Source of the DNA: Cellvibrionales bacterium
GTDB taxonomy: Bacteria > Pseudomonadota > Gammaproteobacteria > Pseudomonadales > GM7GCV1
Assembly: GCA_014323765.1 (NCBI GenBank)
Contig: JACONM010000002.1
Coordinates: 3,153-39,270, forward strand
Direction: 5' to 3'
Length of the DNA stretch: 36,118 nt
Shown piece by piece: positions 5,576-16,306 of this stretch. The first letter of the stretch is position 1; each line of letters starts with the position of its first letter. The position numbers and the translations under genes are program-made. Below the pieces are notes generated by a model. The model searched no databases, was not told the origin of the DNA, and saw only the letters and a program-made list of their open reading frames with translations.

Positions 5576-6568
5576 ATGCATCCGATATTTGCGCTGGTGG
5601 TGGCGCGTAACAAAGAGTTTTACCGCGATCGTGCGGCGTTGGTGTGGAGCATTTGTTTTCCGCTGCTGTTGATTTTGGGTTTTAGCCTGGCTTTTGCGCG
5701 GCCGGAGCCGGCGGTTTTCCAGCTGGGGCTGGTCGATGAGGCCGCGCCCGCTGCACTGCCGGAGTATGTGGCGACGGTCGACTACGTTGATCGCGAGCGG
5801 GCCCTGGCGCGGTTGCGGCATCATGAATTGGATCTGCTGTTGGATGGCGGCGCGGGGCGGCTGTATTACAACGCGCTGTCGCCGGCCAGTTTGGCACTGT
5901 TGGATCTGCTCGATGGGGGCGACCCGCTGGGGCTGGAAACTCAGGCGGTGACGGGCGAAGCGGTGCGCTATGCGGACTGGGTTATCCCCGGCGTGGTGGG
6001 TATGAATTTGATGTTTGGGGCACTGTTTGGGGTGGGTTTTGTCATCGTCCGCTATCGCAAAAATGGGGTACTGCGGCGGCTGGCGGCATCGCCGATTTCG
6101 CCGCTGGTTTTTTTGACGTCGCAAATGCTGTCGCGCTTTATTATCGTTATGGCGGTCAACAGTGCTATTTTAATTAGCTGCACCCTGCTGCTGGGGCTGC
6201 GTATGGAGGGTAGCTGGCTGAGTCTGCTGCTGACTTTGGGGGTCGGTAGTTTGACGATGATTTGCGTGGGGCTGGTGGTGGCCAGTCGAATTGCCAGTGA
6301 GGAATTGGCGAATGGGTTGCTGGATACGCTGAGTTTGCTGATGATGTTTTTCTCCGAGCTTTGGTTTTCTCTGGACAGTGCGCCGCGTTGGATGCAGTGG
6401 CTGTCTGAATTGCTGCCGCTGACCCATATGGTGCGGGCGTTGCGGGCGATTATGGTGGAGGGGGCGGGGCTGGCGGATATTTGGTCTAGTTTGGCGGCGC
6501 TGGGGCTGTTTGCGGTGTTTAGTTTGGCTTTGGCGGCGCGGTTGTTTCGCTGGGAGGCGGATGGGTGA
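5576..6568 (+). CDS. ABC-2 type transporter permease
   Basis: Membrane partner of the preceding ATPase, 330 residues. The N-terminal part has one membrane segment (about residues 20-40) followed by a soluble region of about 100 residues. Then come five hydrophobic segments from about residue 135 to 325, including the [19 protein letters not shown] turn that marks ABC-2 permeases of the multidrug or NodJ kind. The C-terminal [17 protein letters not shown] is also typical of this family. The gene ends two bases before the ATG of the macro-domain gene. Substrate unknown; drug, lipid or polysaccharide export are all possible. Confidence 0.9.
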
Positions 6569-9130: not shown

Positions 9131-12100
9131 TTATCGGCCCTTGCGGTCTTTTAGCCATTTTTGGGCGGGTTGGTAGCCGCCTATGTAGAATTGCCATGCT
9201 GTTTCTGGCACTTTATCAAAATACTGGGTTTTGTTTATGTAGATGCGGTCGTTGATGAAGCGGGGTTTTTCTATTTTCTGATCGCCCTCGCCGGCGAGGG
9301 GGTACGGGGTCTCGCCGATGGCGTCTGGCTCCATCAGGTGTAGGCGGCGTAGCGCAGTGCCCTGTTTGCTTACCGCCCAAAACTCTGCCGCGCTGGCGGG
9401 CCAGGGGATGCGGGGGAAGTCGATTTTTAGGAATTCGGCGTAAGTGGCGCGATAGGCGGGGCAGTGTAAAACGCCGTAGATGTAATCGAACACTTGTTCC
9501 GGGCCGGGAGTGCCATGGTCGGGGTGGTCGGCTTGTTCTTGTAGTTTCCGGTAAAGTGTTTCATCGAAATTTACCCTGCGATTTTTTTCGATACCTTGCA
9601 TGCTTGGAGCGGAGTAAAGGTAAAGAGGGAATAAGGAGTTGATATGGTAAGCATCGTACGTTTTATGCCCACAAATTTTGTTAGCAACAATGCCCCCTAC
9701 CTGCTCTTCTTTGATTCTTGGTATTATCAATCCAAGGTTATTTCCCTCTAGCATGTGACGCATGATATTAGATCTAGGAGATTCAATAAAGCCGCGTGAT
9801 TTGCCAGTGTAATAGGTCCATCTTGTATCAAATGGACGATATATAATAGGCTTAATATGATTTTCGGAAAGATCGCTATTCAGGTCTGCTTGTGCTTTCT
9901 TCACTGTCCAACCTTGTGTGTCTTTGATTTTATAATTTTGCTTTGCTTCCTCGACCCCTAACACAGCAAAATTTTTGACCCTAAGCCACAATGCTTCCCT
10001 GTTTTGATCAACAGTAATAGCATCTCTAGAGGTGACAATTCCACCTGATTTAACGGGCATAAAATCGCGAATTGAAAAACCCTTTTCATAAACCGCCTGC
10101 GCTGTATAATCCCGCAATATAAAGGGATGTTGCGGCGCAGGGCTTTGCAGTCGGTTAAAAATGGAGTTTGTAAGGTCGGCTTCCTGTAATAGTTTGTATT
10201 TCTCAGCCCGATCGCCCCATAGATCGGCATGTATCACTTCTGCCAGTTCTTTATTGCTGCCGTTCTTTTTGACCGCGATAATAATGGCTACGCCCTGCTT
10301 AATATCGAAGATATTTTTATCCGGGATGCCGCCCGGCGATGCCTCTTTTTTATTGCTGTTGCCGTGCAGATCTAGAATCCAGATTTTATCGAAGGTATGC
10401 AACAGGTGCCAGCGCATGCCGCGGAAAGTGGGGCCATCGAGATAACTGTTATCAGTGATAAAGCCTAGTACACCCCCACCATTATTTTCTATAAAATTAG
10501 ATGAAAGACGAATAAATTTTATGTAACTGTTATTTAGCCATTTGGAGTTGCGTTCCTGCAATTTATCTATGCCGCCCGGCTCTTTTTTGTAATCGTCCAT
10601 TAGGTTGCCAAGCCAGCCCTTTGATTTGCCGCCTTCGCCTAGATAGGGCGGGTTGCCAATTACACACATAATCGGCATCTCGCTCTTTATTTCATTAGCA
10701 CCTTTGGCTTCATTGCTGAGCCATTGAGCGAAAGGCATGGCTTGCGTGGAGAGTGCGCCGCTTTCTTCTAGGCTGTCGGTCAAATAGACCGATAGGCGCG
10801 GCGGTTGCTTGGTGGGTTTGTAGCCCATTTCGGTCAGAGTCATATCGAGCTTTGTATGGCACATGGCATAGGATGCCATCAGCAGTTCGAAACCGTGCAA
10901 ACGAGGGATCAGGTGACGCTCGATGTATTCCGACCACATGCTCGATGCGAGTTTTTTAATTTTAGGGGCAATCTGCTTGATTACCTCGGCGAGAAAAGTA
11001 CCGGTCCCCGTAGCCGGGTCTAAGATTTGTACCCGATGCACCTGCCGCTCCTCGCTATCGGTTTTATCTGTAGCGCAACGAATGGTTACTTTGGAAGTGT
11101 CGGCCAGACCATCGCGCAAGCCAAATTCCGTTTGCAACACCTCGTCCACCGCCCGTACAATAAAATTGACCACCGGTTCTGGCGTGTACCAAACCCCTCG
11201 CGCCTTGCGTTTTTTGGGGTTGTAAGCGGCTAGAAACGTTTCATAAAAATGCAGAAAGGGGTCGCGCTGCCCGGTGAACTTGCCGAAGTCCGCCATGATC
11301 TGTGCCATATCGCATGCTTGAAAAACCTGCGCTAGGTCATCGACAATCCATACAATGCTTTCATCAAGATCTGGTCCAGCCACATAGCCAAACAGAGAAC
11401 GCAAGAAAGGGTTCGATTTAGGCAGCAATGTCAATGCCCGTTGCCGGCTAAATGGGTGCGAGCCGTCATCGTGTAAGCGAGCGGCAAACATGCCATAGGC
11501 GATGGTCTCCGCGTAAATATCGGCAAAGTCGTCCGCCGTTATATCGCCGATCAAATTTGCTTGAAACGCCTTGTGCTGTTGGCTAAGTTCAGTTTGCTGT
11601 TTTTTATCTTGGCGCAGTACATAGCGCAGAGAATTTTTAATGAGTTCGGCTTTGCCCGCCATGCGCTCGGCCAGTTCCCGCGGGCTGTTAATGGCTTGCG
11701 GATCCTGCGCCGCAAACTCACGCAGCAGGGTTGCAAGGCGGTCAAATTCCTGTCGCCGCGGCTGTATCCCTTTCTCCGCATGCAAATCGGCAATGCTAAC
11801 CGCGGCGACCCGCGCCCCATCGCGGTAAAAATCCCAATCGCGGCAGTTGGTATAAATCAGGTTGGGAAAACCAGCTAGGTAACGCTTGTGCTGATCTTTG
11901 TTGTTACCTTTCAAAGCGTGAATATCCATGGGCAGATCCTTGGCTTCAATATGACCGATAACCAGATCCCCGCGCTGGACAATAAAATCGGGTGCCCCAC
12001 ATTCCACCGGCTTAGGTTCGTTCACAGCCCTGACCCCCGCGGCGATGGAGTCAAGCAGCTTTTGCAACGCCGCTCGATAAGAGTGCTCAGTCGCAACTCC

Positions 12101-12148
12101 AGTCTTGCGAATTTGCGCTACTTCGAGGAGAAAATCTTTAATTTTCAA
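9131..12148 (-). CDS. Single-chain type IIG-like restriction endonuclease/N6-adenine methyltransferase, interrupted near the C terminus
   Basis: A combined restriction and modification enzyme of 1005 residues. The N-terminal nuclease domain shows a PD-(D/E)xK pattern: Asp54 in GAPDFIV, then Glu68 and Lys70 in GHIEAKD. A helical linker follows, then an N6-adenine methylase: YTPEPVVNFIV (motif X, about 321), DPATGTGTF (motif I, 377-385) and NPPY (motif IV, 499-502). The C-terminal third is probably the target-recognition part. No helicase motifs are seen, which separates it from type ISP enzymes. The start is TTG at 12148, supported by GGAG at 12157-12160. The gene is more A+T-rich than its neighbours. 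Translation stops at 9131 although homology continues in frame to 9026, so activity is uncertain. It is divergent from the large split gene at 12514. Confidence 0.88.
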   Translation of the reverse strand: MKIKDFLLEVAQIRKTGVATEHSYRAALQKLLDSIAAGVRAVNEPKPVECGAPDFIVQRGDLVIGHIEAKDLPMDIHALKGNNKDQHKRYLAGFPNLIYTNCRDWDFYRDGARVAAVSIADLHAEKGIQPRRQEFDRLATLLREFAAQDPQAINSPRELAERMAGKAELIKNSLRYVLRQDKKQQTELSQQHKAFQANLIGDITADDFADIYAETIAYGMFAARLHDDGSHPFSRQRALTLLPKSNPFLRSLFGYVAGPDLDESIVWIVDDLAQVFQACDMAQIMADFGKFTGQRDPFLHFYETFLAAYNPKKRKARGVWYTPEPVVNFIVRAVDEVLQTEFGLRDGLADTSKVTIRCATDKTDSEERQVHRVQILDPATGTGTFLAEVIKQIAPKIKKLASSMWSEYIERHLIPRLHGFELLMASYAMCHTKLDMTLTEMGYKPTKQPPRLSVYLTDSLEESGALSTQAMPFAQWLSNEAKGANEIKSEMPIMCVIGNPPYLGEGGKSKGWLGNLMDDYKKEPGGIDKLQERNSKWLNNSYIKFIRLSSNFIENNGGGVLGFITDNSYLDGPTFRGMRWHLLHTFDKIWILDLHGNSNKKEASPGGIPDKNIFDIKQGVAIIIAVKKNGSNKELAEVIHADLWGDRAEKYKLLQEADLTNSIFNRLQSPAPQHPFILRDYTAQAVYEKGFSIRDFMPVKSGGIVTSRDAITVDQNREALWLRVKNFAVLGVEEAKQNYKIKDTQGWTVKKAQADLNSDLSENHIKPIIYRPFDTRWTYYTGKSRGFIESPRSNIMRHMLEGNNLGLIIPRIKEEQVGGIVANKICGHKTYDAYHINSLFPLYLYSAPSMQGIEKNRRVNFDETLYRKLQEQADHPDHGTPGPEQVFDYIYGVLHCPAYRATYAEFLKIDFPRIPWPASAAEFWAVSKQGTALRRLHLMEPDAIGETPYPLAGEGDQKIEKPRFINDRIYINKTQYFDKVPETAWQFYIGGYQPAQKWLKDRKGR

Positions 12149-12513: not shown

Positions 12514-12864
12514 ATGCCTATCAGTGAAACCGATATACGTCAGTGGGCTGACCATCAAGAATGCCGCAACAATTTGCCAATTCTCATTCGTCGGCTGATA
12601 AGAGAAACCGTGAGCAGGAATTCGTTGATCTCCCTACGTTTCCCCGGAAACGAGGCGGTAGATTTGTCCGGAATCGATGGGCAAGCAGAATGTAAAGTCG
12701 GTACCCTCTGGGTGCCTGAAGGTGTTAGCTTTTGGGAAATGGGCTGTGAGCAGAAGCCAGCAGTCAAAGCCAATAAGGATTATAAAAAACGGGTAGAAAC
12801 ACTTCAAGATGAGCAAGAAAATACCAGTTTTGTTTTTGTTACGCCAAGAAAGGTGGCCCGGTAA
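12514..12864 (+). CDS. N-terminal fragment of a large frameshifted defence-like protein
   Basis: This 116-residue frame starts at an ATG with a good ribosome site (AGGAG, spacing seven) and ends soon after the sequence SFVFVTPR. It is the beginning of the protein that continues in the next frame from about 12851. The pattern DLSGIDG, then VPEGVSFWEMG, then KANKDYKKR, then FVFVTPR is one I associate with the N-terminal, nuclease-like (PD-(D/E)xK-type) domain of very large uncharacterised proteins near restriction systems. That association is from memory, not a search. The last residues after TPR (KVAR) are probably frameshift products. Skipping one A in the run 12849-12851 would join TPR to RWPGKEKW. 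Confidence 0.8.
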   Translation: MPISETDIRQWADHQECRNNLPILIRRLIRETVSRNSLISLRFPGNEAVDLSGIDGQAECKVGTLWVPEGVSFWEMGCEQKPAVKANKDYKKRVETLQDEQENTSFVFVTPRKVAR

Positions 12865-15800
12865 AGAAAAATGGCTAAAAGAAAAAAATAATAAAGGATC
12901 TTGGGGGTCTGTCAAGGCGTATGATGCGATAGACATTGAAACTTGGCTAGAGGAAGCCCCGGCGACTGCTCGCTGGCTGGGTGAAAAACTAGGAATGGCC
13001 TCACCCGGCTTGAAGACACCGCAAGAATGGTGGGATGGATGGGCCACGGTTTCAAAGCCACCAATCTCGACAAAATTGGTCTCAACAAGGCGGCATGATG
13101 AACAGCAGAATCTATTGCAGAAGTTGCGGAATCAGAATGGGGTGATCTCGGTACAAGCAGATGATCGAGCAGAAGCCGTAGCGTTTATTGTGGCATCGCT
13201 AATTGATACCAACGCACTTGATCTGCTAGACAAAACGCTTGTGGCTACTTCCCCTGAAGCGAGAATTCCCTCGAGTTCCAGTCACCTAATTGTTATCGCA
13301 GATCTTAGAGATGGTGAAAACCCGGACTTTGGCGACCGGCGAAATTTGACCATTATTCGTACTTACTCCAAAGGGCGAGTCGGCATCGACGATTCTATTC
13401 TTCTCTCGCATGTCCCGGCAGAAACTTTTCGCTCGGAGCTTGAAACAATGGGCATGTCTCGAGGTGATGCAGAAAGTAAGGCACTAGAAGTGGGGCATTC
13501 CGTTCCCATCTTGAGACGGCGACTCTCCAGAGATCCAGATATTCGACGACCTATTTGGGCTAGGGATCACGCATCGGCAGAAAAATTGATCCCGTTTGTT
13601 TTGGCGGGTTCTTGGGTTGAGCGCGAGGATGTAGATGATAGGGCAGTTATCGAGTTGCTTGGCGATATCAAGAGTCGTGAGGTTCGATCTATTCGAGATG
13701 AACTAGTTGCGCTAGATGACGCACCGATAGCCCGCTATGGTCCCGTCAACGTGGCCGTGTCTCAGCTTGATGCGATTTTTGCGGTAGGGGCATATATCAA
13801 AGAAGAAGATCTGGATCGATTCTTTCGGTTAGTGCCAGAAATTCTTGGTGATAGAGACCCCGCTCTTGACCTTCCAGAAGATCAGCGATGGATGGCTAAT
13901 ATCCTCGGTCATGCACGAAGTTTCTCTAATGAATTGTTGTCTGGATTGAGCAATGCGCTTTGTATTCTCTCCGTGCATGGTGCCGCAATTTTCGAGAATA
14001 GATTGGAAATGAATCCTAGCTATCGTGCCGAAGGAATCGTCCGCTCGCTACTAGATGGTGCAGATGAAGACCGATGGCTTTCCATTCGGAGACATTTGTG
14101 TGTTATTGCCGAGACATCTCCGAATGCATTCCTCGACTGTCTGGATACGGAGCTTCGCAAACCCGAACCGGCTATACGTGCAATCATGGGTAGTATCGAA
14201 GGCGGGATAAGCGGTGATTGCCTCAGGGCCAATTTGTTTTGGGCGCTTGAATCATTAGCCTGGCACCCTGAGTATTTTGCGCGTGTGGCAGAAATTGTTT
14301 TCGGCCTGCGCCGCCTAGAGGTTAAAGATAGATTCAGCAATTCGCCAAAATCGACCGCTCGCTCGCTGTTTTTGGCTTGGCTGCCTGCTACTGCACTTGG
14401 AGCTTCCGAAAGGATGGCTGTCTTGCGCCGTTTATCTGACCGTTTCCGGGATCCTGCGATGGACGTTTGCATTTCACTGTTGCCAGAAAGTGGACAAAGT
14501 TTTGCTTCAGAAACACAAAAACCAAAGTGGCGGGCACTGAATACTAAAATACTCCCTCCCACAAGGGCGAATATTTACAAAGCAGCGATTAAAGCCAGTC
14601 GGCTTCTCCTCGATATGACACCCTTTGACAAGCCAGAGCTAGAAAAGTTACTAGGGATTGTAACCTGTTTGCATCCCGATGACTTTTTCCGCTTAGTAGG
14701 CGAGACTGAACGCTGGTCAAAAACAGCATCTGATGAAGACAAGGCGGAGCTTCGACATTGCCTGCGCCGACACCATGTTAGGTGGGAGCATTATGAACAG
14801 GATAAAAAAGAGGATCTAGTCGCCGCCCTTCACCGTATGGAAGCGGCTTTGGAGCCGCAGTCACCGACCGCTCGTCATCGCTGGTTGTTTGGATCGAGCA
14901 TCGAGGGGCGCATGCTAGTTGAAGACAAAGAAAATGAGCGTCTTTCTTGGCAGGATCAGAGTGCGCTTCTCGCTAAACGGTGCAAGGCCGCGCTGGATGA
15001 CATCAGGGAACAGGGAGGAGATGAGGCTGTTCTTTCCTTTGCGCTTAGCGTAGAAAAGCCTGACCTAGTTGTGCAGACATTGATTCCGCAGGATTCCAAT
15101 GCGGAATTCGTAGCTAAATGGGTGTCAATGGCCATGAAAACCGATATCAACGATAAATCAAACGATTTCCTTCGACAGTTATTATGGAGCGCAGGAGAAG
15201 ATAATTTACGCTTTGTGACTGACACCCTTGTCAAGCAAGGGATCCTAAAAACTACAGAAAATCGTTCTAGATTTGCAGGGCATCTTTCGTGGCATCCATT
15301 CAGTTGGCGGGTTGCAGAAGAACTGGGGAGCGACGTAGGCTCTACATTCTGGAAAACAGTATTAATTCCCTACCTTCGCCCTGATGATGCGCCTATTAAA
15401 GACATCGAATATCTAGTTTCTAAGCTGCTTAAATTTCAGCGACCTCGGTCGGTGTTTTCTGCTATCCAGTTCATGAAGGATGACCTAGATCCTGGATTGT
15501 GGATAAAGATACTTGAGGCAATTTCGAGAGGAGAAGAGCCCGACGGAGAATTTCCGAAGTCGTATAATCTCGATGAGATATTCCAGTACCTTGACGAAAC
15601 TGACGAAGTGACCGATGAACAAATTGCCAAACTTGAATTGCCTTTTGTTGCGCATCTCTCTGGCTATGGGTACCGGAATAAGAAGAGAACGCTCGCATTG
15701 CATCGACAGCTTGCATGCGATCCAAGCCTCTTCGTTAAGATGCTTTGCTGGCAATATCGGCGACAAGATAAAGTAGAAGAACCGGAGTGTGAAAAATTGC

Positions 15801-16306
15801 CCGCAGAAAATGGCGCGTCCTATGCAAATCTGGCCTACCGATTGCTGCATGGATGGCGCACGGTTCCCGGTTGCGATGCGGATGGCACTATAAGATCAGA
15901 TAAGTTCAATTCGTGGATGGATAATGCTTTACAGCTTGCTGTCGAGGTCGATAGGAAGGAGTTCGCCGAAATTCATTTGGGAGAATTGCTGGCAAACTTT
16001 GCGCGAGATAGGGCGTGGGATGACTGGTTGCCGTCCTGCATTCTGGACTATCTTGATCGTCCTGAGAATAGTGGCTTACGAAAAAAATTTGAAACCGGAG
16101 TGGTGAACGCCCGGGGTGCCACATGGCGTGCCTATGGCGGTCAGCAAGAAAGGCATCTTGCCGGTAAGTACCGTGAACTCGCGACGATGTATGAGGTCGC
16201 GCATCCGCGTGTCTCTGCGATGCTTCGTTCCATTGCTGATAATTATGATTTAGACGGGGACTGGGAAGATCGGCGGGCAGCCAAGGAAGAGCGATTTGAT
16301 TTATAG
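12809..16306 (+). CDS. Large uncharacterised defence-like protein (main part of the frameshifted gene)
   Basis: This frame holds most of a protein of about 1263 residues when joined to 12514-12848. The first 14 residues from ATG 12809 overlap the upstream frame and are probably not native; the real sequence resumes at RWPGKEKW (12851). The segment KAYDAIDIETWLEEAPATARWL closes the N-terminal domain. Residues 100-220 look like an NTPase core, but where a P-loop would lie the sequence reads VISVQADDRAEA, with no GxxxxGK[ST]. The Walker B-like strand is HLIVIADLRD. The rest is helical and repeat-like. The end, GATWRAYGGQQERHLAGKYR, resembles the end of related giant proteins as I remember them, so the C terminus appears complete. 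A+T-rich composition and the divergent restriction gene suggest horizontal transfer. Function unknown; phage defence is an inference. Confidence 0.8.
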   Translation: MSKKIPVLFLLRQERWPGKEKWLKEKNNKGSWGSVKAYDAIDIETWLEEAPATARWLGEKLGMASPGLKTPQEWWDGWATVSKPPISTKLVSTRRHDEQQNLLQKLRNQNGVISVQADDRAEAVAFIVASLIDTNALDLLDKTLVATSPEARIPSSSSHLIVIADLRDGENPDFGDRRNLTIIRTYSKGRVGIDDSILLSHVPAETFRSELETMGMSRGDAESKALEVGHSVPILRRRLSRDPDIRRPIWARDHASAEKLIPFVLAGSWVEREDVDDRAVIELLGDIKSREVRSIRDELVALDDAPIARYGPVNVAVSQLDAIFAVGAYIKEEDLDRFFRLVPEILGDRDPALDLPEDQRWMANILGHARSFSNELLSGLSNALCILSVHGAAIFENRLEMNPSYRAEGIVRSLLDGADEDRWLSIRRHLCVIAETSPNAFLDCLDTELRKPEPAIRAIMGSIEGGISGDCLRANLFWALESLAWHPEYFARVAEIVFGLRRLEVKDRFSNSPKSTARSLFLAWLPATALGASERMAVLRRLSDRFRDPAMDVCISLLPESGQSFASETQKPKWRALNTKILPPTRANIYKAAIKASRLLLDMTPFDKPELEKLLGIVTCLHPDDFFRLVGETERWSKTASDEDKAELRHCLRRHHVRWEHYEQDKKEDLVAALHRMEAALEPQSPTARHRWLFGSSIEGRMLVEDKENERLSWQDQSALLAKRCKAALDDIREQGGDEAVLSFALSVEKPDLVVQTLIPQDSNAEFVAKWVSMAMKTDINDKSNDFLRQLLWSAGEDNLRFVTDTLVKQGILKTTENRSRFAGHLSWHPFSWRVAEELGSDVGSTFWKTVLIPYLRPDDAPIKDIEYLVSKLLKFQRPRSVFSAIQFMKDDLDPGLWIKILEAISRGEEPDGEFPKSYNLDEIFQYLDETDEVTDEQIAKLELPFVAHLSGYGYRNKKRTLALHRQLACDPSLFVKMLCWQYRRQDKVEEPECEKLPAENGASYANLAYRLLHGWRTVPGCDADGTIRSDKFNSWMDNALQLAVEVDRKEFAEIHLGELLANFARDRAWDDWLPSCILDYLDRPENSGLRKKFETGVVNARGATWRAYGGQQERHLAGKYRELATMYEVAHPRVSAMLRSIADNYDLDGDWEDRRAAKEERFDL
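12849..12851 (+). other. Probable one-base insertion (frameshift) in a run of three A
   Basis: In the first frame the codons are ACG CCA AGA AAG GTG. Removing one A gives ACG CCA AGA AGG TGG CCC GGT, which joins TPR to RWPGKEKW and continues open for 1151 codons to 16306. The joined protein would have 1263 residues. No known programmed +1 slippery motif is visible, so a mutation or a sequencing error is the simplest explanation. Confidence 0.8.

What the first reader, a model, noticed from the sequence alone, without database searches (positions are those of the whole stretch)
12514..16306. A 1263-residue defence-like gene is broken by one extra A
The first frame ends just after FVFVTPR and the second resumes with RWPGKEKW. 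Removing one A at 12849-12851 joins them into a continuous family-like sequence. Both ends of the long protein look intact, so the break is probably recent, or it is a sequencing error.
Basis: partly seen in the sequence, partly recalled or inferred. Interest (0 to 1): 0.65.

Follow-up and report, generated by a model that had tools for sequence, protein, structure and literature searches.

The report
Frameshifted nuclease–solenoid defence-like gene
A large bacterial gene of an unnamed defence-like family (a DNA-cutting domain joined to a long helical arm) is knocked out in this genome by a single-base frame change inside the DNA-cutting domain, while about 84 sampled relatives elsewhere are unbroken at that point; the break itself is ordinary, the family has no name yet.

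Summary
Frame 1 (12514-12864) and frame 2 (12809-16306) are two parts of one gene, offset by one base at the AAA run 12849-12851. Seven close relatives (55-62% identical) are single 1263-residue ORFs; the window's parts sum to 112+1151=1263. In 84 loci from many phyla one ORF crosses the junction, with no shared slippery site. About 200 kb of aligned coding sequence from the same assembly shows no other base-level frame break (two candidates sit at N runs). A real, recent mutation is therefore likelier than an error, though no reads were seen. The family: PD-(D/E)XK nuclease (residues 1-160, AlphaFold2 pLDDT 92), an NTPase-like domain lacking a Walker A, a winged-helix-like part and a HEAT-like solenoid. 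Its best bacterial PDB match is Avs4. No Pfam, NCBIfam or PADLOC profile covers it; only weak local PD-Lambda-4_A matches. The break cuts the nuclease fold after its catalytic residues, so loss of function is expected. Five broken nuclease-bearing copies, including this one, are all cut at residues ~90-140 of 1263: possible survivorship, on few heterogeneous cases. New variant of a known kind; defence function inferred, not shown.

The parts
12514..12849 (+). N-terminal part, first 112 residues: PD-(D/E)XK nuclease up to and including its beta4 strand; putative catalytic D55, E75, K85 (and conserved D89) present
   Evidence: ribosome-binding-site-like AGGAG 7 nt upstream of ATG 12514
12849..12851 (+). 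short A run where the reading frame changes by one base
   Evidence: codons at the same place in relatives are CCG AGG AGG TGG / CCT AGA AGA TGG / CCA AGA CGC TGG
12862..12864 (+). premature stop TAA met by the first frame
12851..16306 (+). remaining 1151 residues plus stop in the second frame: end of nuclease fold (to about residue 160), NTPase-like alpha/beta domain without Walker A, winged-helix-like part, HEAT-like helical solenoid
12809..12811 (+). ATG that formally opens the 1165-aa ORF; no Shine-Dalgarno-like sequence at the usual distance and its first 14 residues do not match the family, so probably not a real start
9131..12148 (-). divergent neighbour: type ISP/IIG restriction-modification enzyme (1005 aa); with the broken gene it forms a 49% GC block between flanks of 63% and 58% GC

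Best explanation
The window holds a recently inactivated copy of an unnamed, probably anti-phage gene. Intact relatives make one protein of about 1263 residues (in many branches with an extra N-terminal Xre helix-turn-helix): a PD-(D/E)XK nuclease effector, an NTPase-like module that has no Walker A motif, and a long HEAT-like solenoid. By analogy with Avs proteins the solenoid would sense an invader and the N-terminal nuclease would then cut DNA. In this genome one extra base at the AAA run 12849-12851 shifts the frame after residue 112, inside the nuclease fold, so the first frame meets a stop at 12862 a few codons later. Neither piece contains a whole nuclease. Shown: the frame change, the intact relatives, the nuclease fold (prediction plus structural matches). 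Inferred: that the mutation is real rather than an assembly error, that function is lost, and that the family defends against phages.
For: Two frames of one protein meeting exactly; seven 55-62% relatives, all single 1263-aa ORFs; 84 loci in one ORF across the junction; 17 of 18 full-length plasmid copies in one aligned piece; 10 of 10 E. coli copies as one CDS. N-terminal domain model pLDDT 92 with PD-(D/E)XK topology and nuclease matches (LlaBIII Z 9.3, R.BspD6I small subunit 8.9, FokI 8.7, MspJI 8.4, Can2 8.3, Avs4 7.9). Full-length model pLDDT 87.5; Avs4 (8dgf) is the best bacterial Foldseek match, E 1.9e-5. Some neighbours are defence genes: RM enzyme here, AbiE in L016, Abi/SIR2/RES-Xre in L019. 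Low GC, and no match in 56 relatives of the same genus, family and order. Assembly: 201 genes, 200 kb compared, no base-level frame break. Window copy differs at 15 of 135 conserved columns against 7-12 for close intact relatives, so it is not much decayed.
Against: No reads, so a consensus error or a strain-level mixture is possible; zero in 200 kb still allows up to about 1.5 errors per 100 kb. The window copy's branch is somewhat longer than its relatives' (0.55 against 0.64 identity to L026), which could also mean relaxed constraint before the break. Nobody has assayed the family as far as I could find; the Avs similarity is fold-level only and most other full-length matches are generic HEAT proteins.
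Confidence: 0.75

Rival explanations
1. Assembly or sequencing error: the gene is intact in the organism.
For: Single-base difference, no other damage in 1263 codons; multi-contig assembly with N-run joins.
Against: No base-level frame break in about 200 kb of aligned genes from the same assembly, so under roughly 6% chance at the 95% upper bound that an error hits this 3.8-kb gene; the site is only AAA, not a long homopolymer; no N in the window.
Confidence: 0.17
2. Programmed +1 frameshifting makes the full protein from both frames.
For: The two frames overlap by 56 nt and the rest of the gene is not decayed; AGA/AGG codons occur at the site in relatives.
Against: No relative needs a shift; site codons vary and no conserved slippery or stimulatory sequence was seen; neither AGA nor AAG would re-pair well one base on (inspection).
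Confidence: 0.03
3. Two real genes: a short nuclease-like protein and a separate long protein started at ATG 12809.
For: Shorter relatives without this nuclease exist naturally (L005, L006, L119, L124) and one has a separate small gene upstream (L020, HetE-N domain).
Against: Those lack residues up to about 300-500, a different boundary; the split here falls inside the nuclease fold; 12809 has no ribosome-binding site and its first 14 residues match nothing in the family.
Confidence: 0.04

Closest known systems
Avs/AVAST STAND defence proteins, especially Avs4 (PDB 8dgf)
   Same: N-terminal PD-(D/E)XK nuclease, then an NTPase-like module, then a long helical sensor arm; best bacterial full-length Foldseek match.
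   Different: No Walker A at the NTPase-like position in any of 60 relatives; no PADLOC Avs profile matches; solenoid is HEAT-like; many members carry an extra N-terminal Xre HTH.
PD-Lambda-4 protein A (PADLOC PDLC03991, 1283 aa)
   Same: Similar length; collinear weak match over residues about 530-640 (best E 5.4e-6).
   Different: Only about 110 of 1283 positions match; a review lists PD-lambda-4 under P-loop NTPase PF13555 (PMC10952713), which was not found here; shorter family members do not match it.
Paracoccus sp. TOH plasmid p1 homologue (WP_289896503 + WP_289896502)
   Same: Also split in two in the record, also inside the nuclease domain (residues 139/140).
   Different: Different site about 27 codons further on and opposite direction, so an independent break.
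E. coli HS ECHS_RS13060 (annotated 'HigA family addiction module antitoxin', 1365 aa)
   Same: Same family (93% DNA identity to L055), intact, in 10 of 5426 E. coli genomes.
   Different: Longer than the window's 1263: carries an N-terminal HTH, which probably explains the misleading name.

Membership tests
PD-(D/E)XK nuclease superfamily | alpha-beta-beta-beta-alpha-beta core | tested here: met
   AF2 pLDDT 92.1: H15-32 E36-40 E54-58 E68-74 H80-94 E103-108; VIA Z 8-10 mostly with restriction and defence nucleases
PD-(D/E)XK nuclease superfamily | acidic pair plus lysine at the active site | tested here: met
   D53 60/60, E73 60/60, K83 59/60 in relatives (lysine on the helix after beta3 instead of E-x-K; spatial arrangement not measured); all kept in the window piece as D55, E75, K85
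Avs/STAND defence ATPases | Walker A P-loop in the NTPase module | tested here: not met
   At the equivalent position the family has ADSxxEA; no Walker A there in 60 sequences
Avs/STAND defence ATPases | recognised by PADLOC Avs or Pfam NACHT/STAND profiles | tested here: not met
   no such hit at E up to 0.05-0.1
Avs/STAND defence ATPases | effector - NTPase-like - helical sensor architecture | tested here: met
   full-length model and Avs4 match; fold-level evidence only
Avs/STAND defence ATPases | activation by a phage protein | not testable with these tools
   needs phage assays
PD-Lambda-4 | full-length match to the PD-Lambda-4_A profile | tested here: inconclusive
   only about 110 positions, E 5.4e-6 to 0.008 in 4 of 7 members and none in 3
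Frameshift pseudogene | orthologues intact across the break | tested here: met
   84 loci, 7 of 7 close relatives
Frameshift pseudogene | frame change present in reads | not testable with these tools
   no reads held
Programmed frameshift gene | conserved recoding site in relatives | tested here: not met

The most novel reading that the evidence does not exclude
Breaks in this family are filtered by toxicity: a frameshift downstream of the nuclease would free an unregulated DNA-cutting domain, so the broken copies that survive are those cut inside the nuclease. All five broken nuclease-bearing copies found (window 112, Paracoccus 139, G717 about 107, L094 about 90, L116/L128 about 96-100) are cut at residues 90-140 of 1263, while copies without the nuclease break elsewhere (L126, G690).
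Probability: 0.2. Interest if true: 0.55.

Novelty: new variant of a known kind. Interest (0 to 1): 0.36.

Why it matters
It identifies a widespread family (257 confirmed loci in one genome scan, plus plasmids, virus-database contigs and E. coli HS) with the layout of a nuclease-armed immune sensor but no Walker A, which no profile library used here names. It also suggests a way of reading broken defence genes: where the break falls may show which part is dangerous when uncoupled. The broken gene itself is an ordinary recent loss.

Tried and rejected
Natural two-gene architecture: rejected. Programmed frameshift or transcriptional slippage: no conserved site, only AAA. An error-prone assembly as the likely cause: the two candidate frame changes elsewhere in this genome lie at N runs. 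Strong decay of the window copy: not seen. Naming the family: Pfam, NCBIfam and PADLOC gave nothing that covers it; PDB sequence search matched essentially HTH proteins through the Xre domain some members carry; papers do not mention the accessions tried. PHROGs was not searched. The first alignment A1 was too divergent to scan with. The single-protein scan of viral contigs found nothing. Flanking genes were not found syntenic in the sampled relatives, so no empty site could be shown.

Full report
Observation. Translation gives a 116-aa ORF at 12514-12864 and a 1165-aa ORF at 12809-16306 on the + strand. The intact relative L024 (Brevirhabdus pacifica) aligns residues 1-112 to 12514-12852 at 67.5% and residues 112-1261 to 12851-16297 at 61.6% in the next frame. 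The pieces meet without gap or overlap at the AAA run 12849-12851 and total 1263 residues, the same length as seven close relatives.

Relatives. A scan of genome contigs returned the best 80 of 257 confirmed loci. Seven are 55-62% identical to the window's second piece (Larsenimonas, Celeribacter, Brevirhabdus, Leisingera, a Rhodobacterales, an Afifellaceae and a Verrucomicrobia bin); all are single ORFs. Counting all loci, 84 have the N-terminal nuclease and the rest in one ORF across the window's break. On plasmids 17 of 18 full-length copies align in one piece; in E. coli 10 of 5426 genomes carry one CDS. The 80 kept loci are the best-scoring ones, so they under-represent broken copies.

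Cause of the break. The codons at the site differ among intact relatives (CCG AGG AGG TGG; CCT AGA AGA TGG; CCA AGA CGC TGG), so there is no conserved recoding site. To judge the assembly, stretches of this genome (938 kb with the window) were compared with stretches of a same-family genome (1.2 Mb): 201 genes, 200 kb aligned, two frame changes, both at runs of N. Base-level frame errors are therefore rare (0 seen; 95% upper bound about 1.5 per 100 kb), which favours a real mutation but does not prove it. No further stop or frame break occurs; under neutral drift that limits the time since the break to under about 2% substitutions per site. The copy departs from conserved columns at 15 of 135 sites, against 7-12 in close intact relatives, and its codon-position divergence is close to that between intact relatives.

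What the protein is. AlphaFold2 on residues 1-165 of L024 with 33 sequences gives pLDDT 92 and the PD-(D/E)XK topology. Most leading VIA-align matches are restriction or defence nucleases: LlaBIII Z 9.3 (3.6 A, 132 residues), R.BspD6I small subunit 8.9, FokI 8.7, MspJI 8.4, Can2 8.3, Avs4 7.9; the top row is AF1548, a protein of unknown function, Z 9.9. Foldseek alone gave no match below E 0.001 for this domain. D53, E73 and K83 are near-invariant and retained in the window. The full-length model (1200 residues, pLDDT 87.5, pTM 0.66) continues with an alpha/beta domain around 205-285, a winged-helix-like part around 370-413 and a helical solenoid. Foldseek's best bacterial match is Avs4 bound to a phage portal (8dgf, E 1.9e-5); the other hits shown are eukaryotic HEAT-type proteins, for which Z-scores are middling. 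No sequence has a Walker A at the NTPase-like place. The break after residue 112 falls just past strand beta4, so neither piece holds a whole nuclease.

Setting. The neighbour at 9131-12148 is a type ISP/IIG restriction-modification enzyme. The two genes form a 49% GC block between flanks of 63% and 58%, and no match was found in 56 genomes of the same genus, family and order. Relatives sit near AbiE, SIR2, RES-Xre or restriction genes and in plasmids and virus-database contigs. The C-terminal part also occurs with other or no N-terminal domain, as expected for a modular sensor. All this is circumstantial evidence for defence.

Pattern of breaks. Four other nuclease-bearing copies are broken: Paracoccus sp. 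TOH (residue 139, opposite shift), G717 (nuclease ends at 107, then unrelated sequence), L094 (starts at about 90 behind a recombinase gene) and L116/L128 (starts at about 96-100, then decayed). With the window, all five are cut at residues 90-140. If breaks fell evenly, five of five in the first 160 of 1263 residues would have a chance near 3e-5, but the cases are few, heterogeneous and not an unbiased census, and the idea was formed after seeing them. It is offered as a hypothesis only.

Verdict. As a broken gene it is ordinary. The interest lies in the unnamed family and in the possible clustering of breaks in the nuclease.

Noticed in passing
L013:5588-9405 (NZ_CP098362.1): Paracoccus sp. 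TOH plasmid copy is also frame-broken inside the nuclease domain and annotated as two hypothetical proteins.
   Followed up: yes
L094:5200-6200: A family copy whose first ~88 residues are replaced by a truncated serine recombinase gene (recombinase identified by eye).
   Followed up: partly
L262 (G717:C79), local 6031-6351: Nuclease domain of the family alone, ending at residue ~107 and followed by unrelated sequence.
   Followed up: partly
L109:8875-12972 (E. coli HS): Intact 1365-aa family member annotated 'HigA family addiction module antitoxin', a name that probably rests only on its HTH; sits next to plasmid transfer genes (trbJ, trbL) and a PIN-domain gene on the chromosome.
   Followed up: partly
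L020:5570-8664 (Buttiauxella plasmid): Shorter relative without the nuclease, directly behind a separate small gene with a HetE-N domain (Pfam PF20701, E 1.5e-40): possible effector swap.
   Followed up: partly
L025:1064-5665: Genes that by eye look like CBASS parts (nucleotidyltransferase, patatin-like) directly upstream of an intact family member.
   Followed up: no
window 9131-12148 (-): Type ISP/IIG restriction-modification enzyme, apparently intact, divergent from the broken gene.
   Followed up: partly
L135:5043-5070 and L129:5822-6094 (own genome): Runs of N inside genes, giving apparent frame changes; scaffold joins or masked bases.
   Followed up: yes
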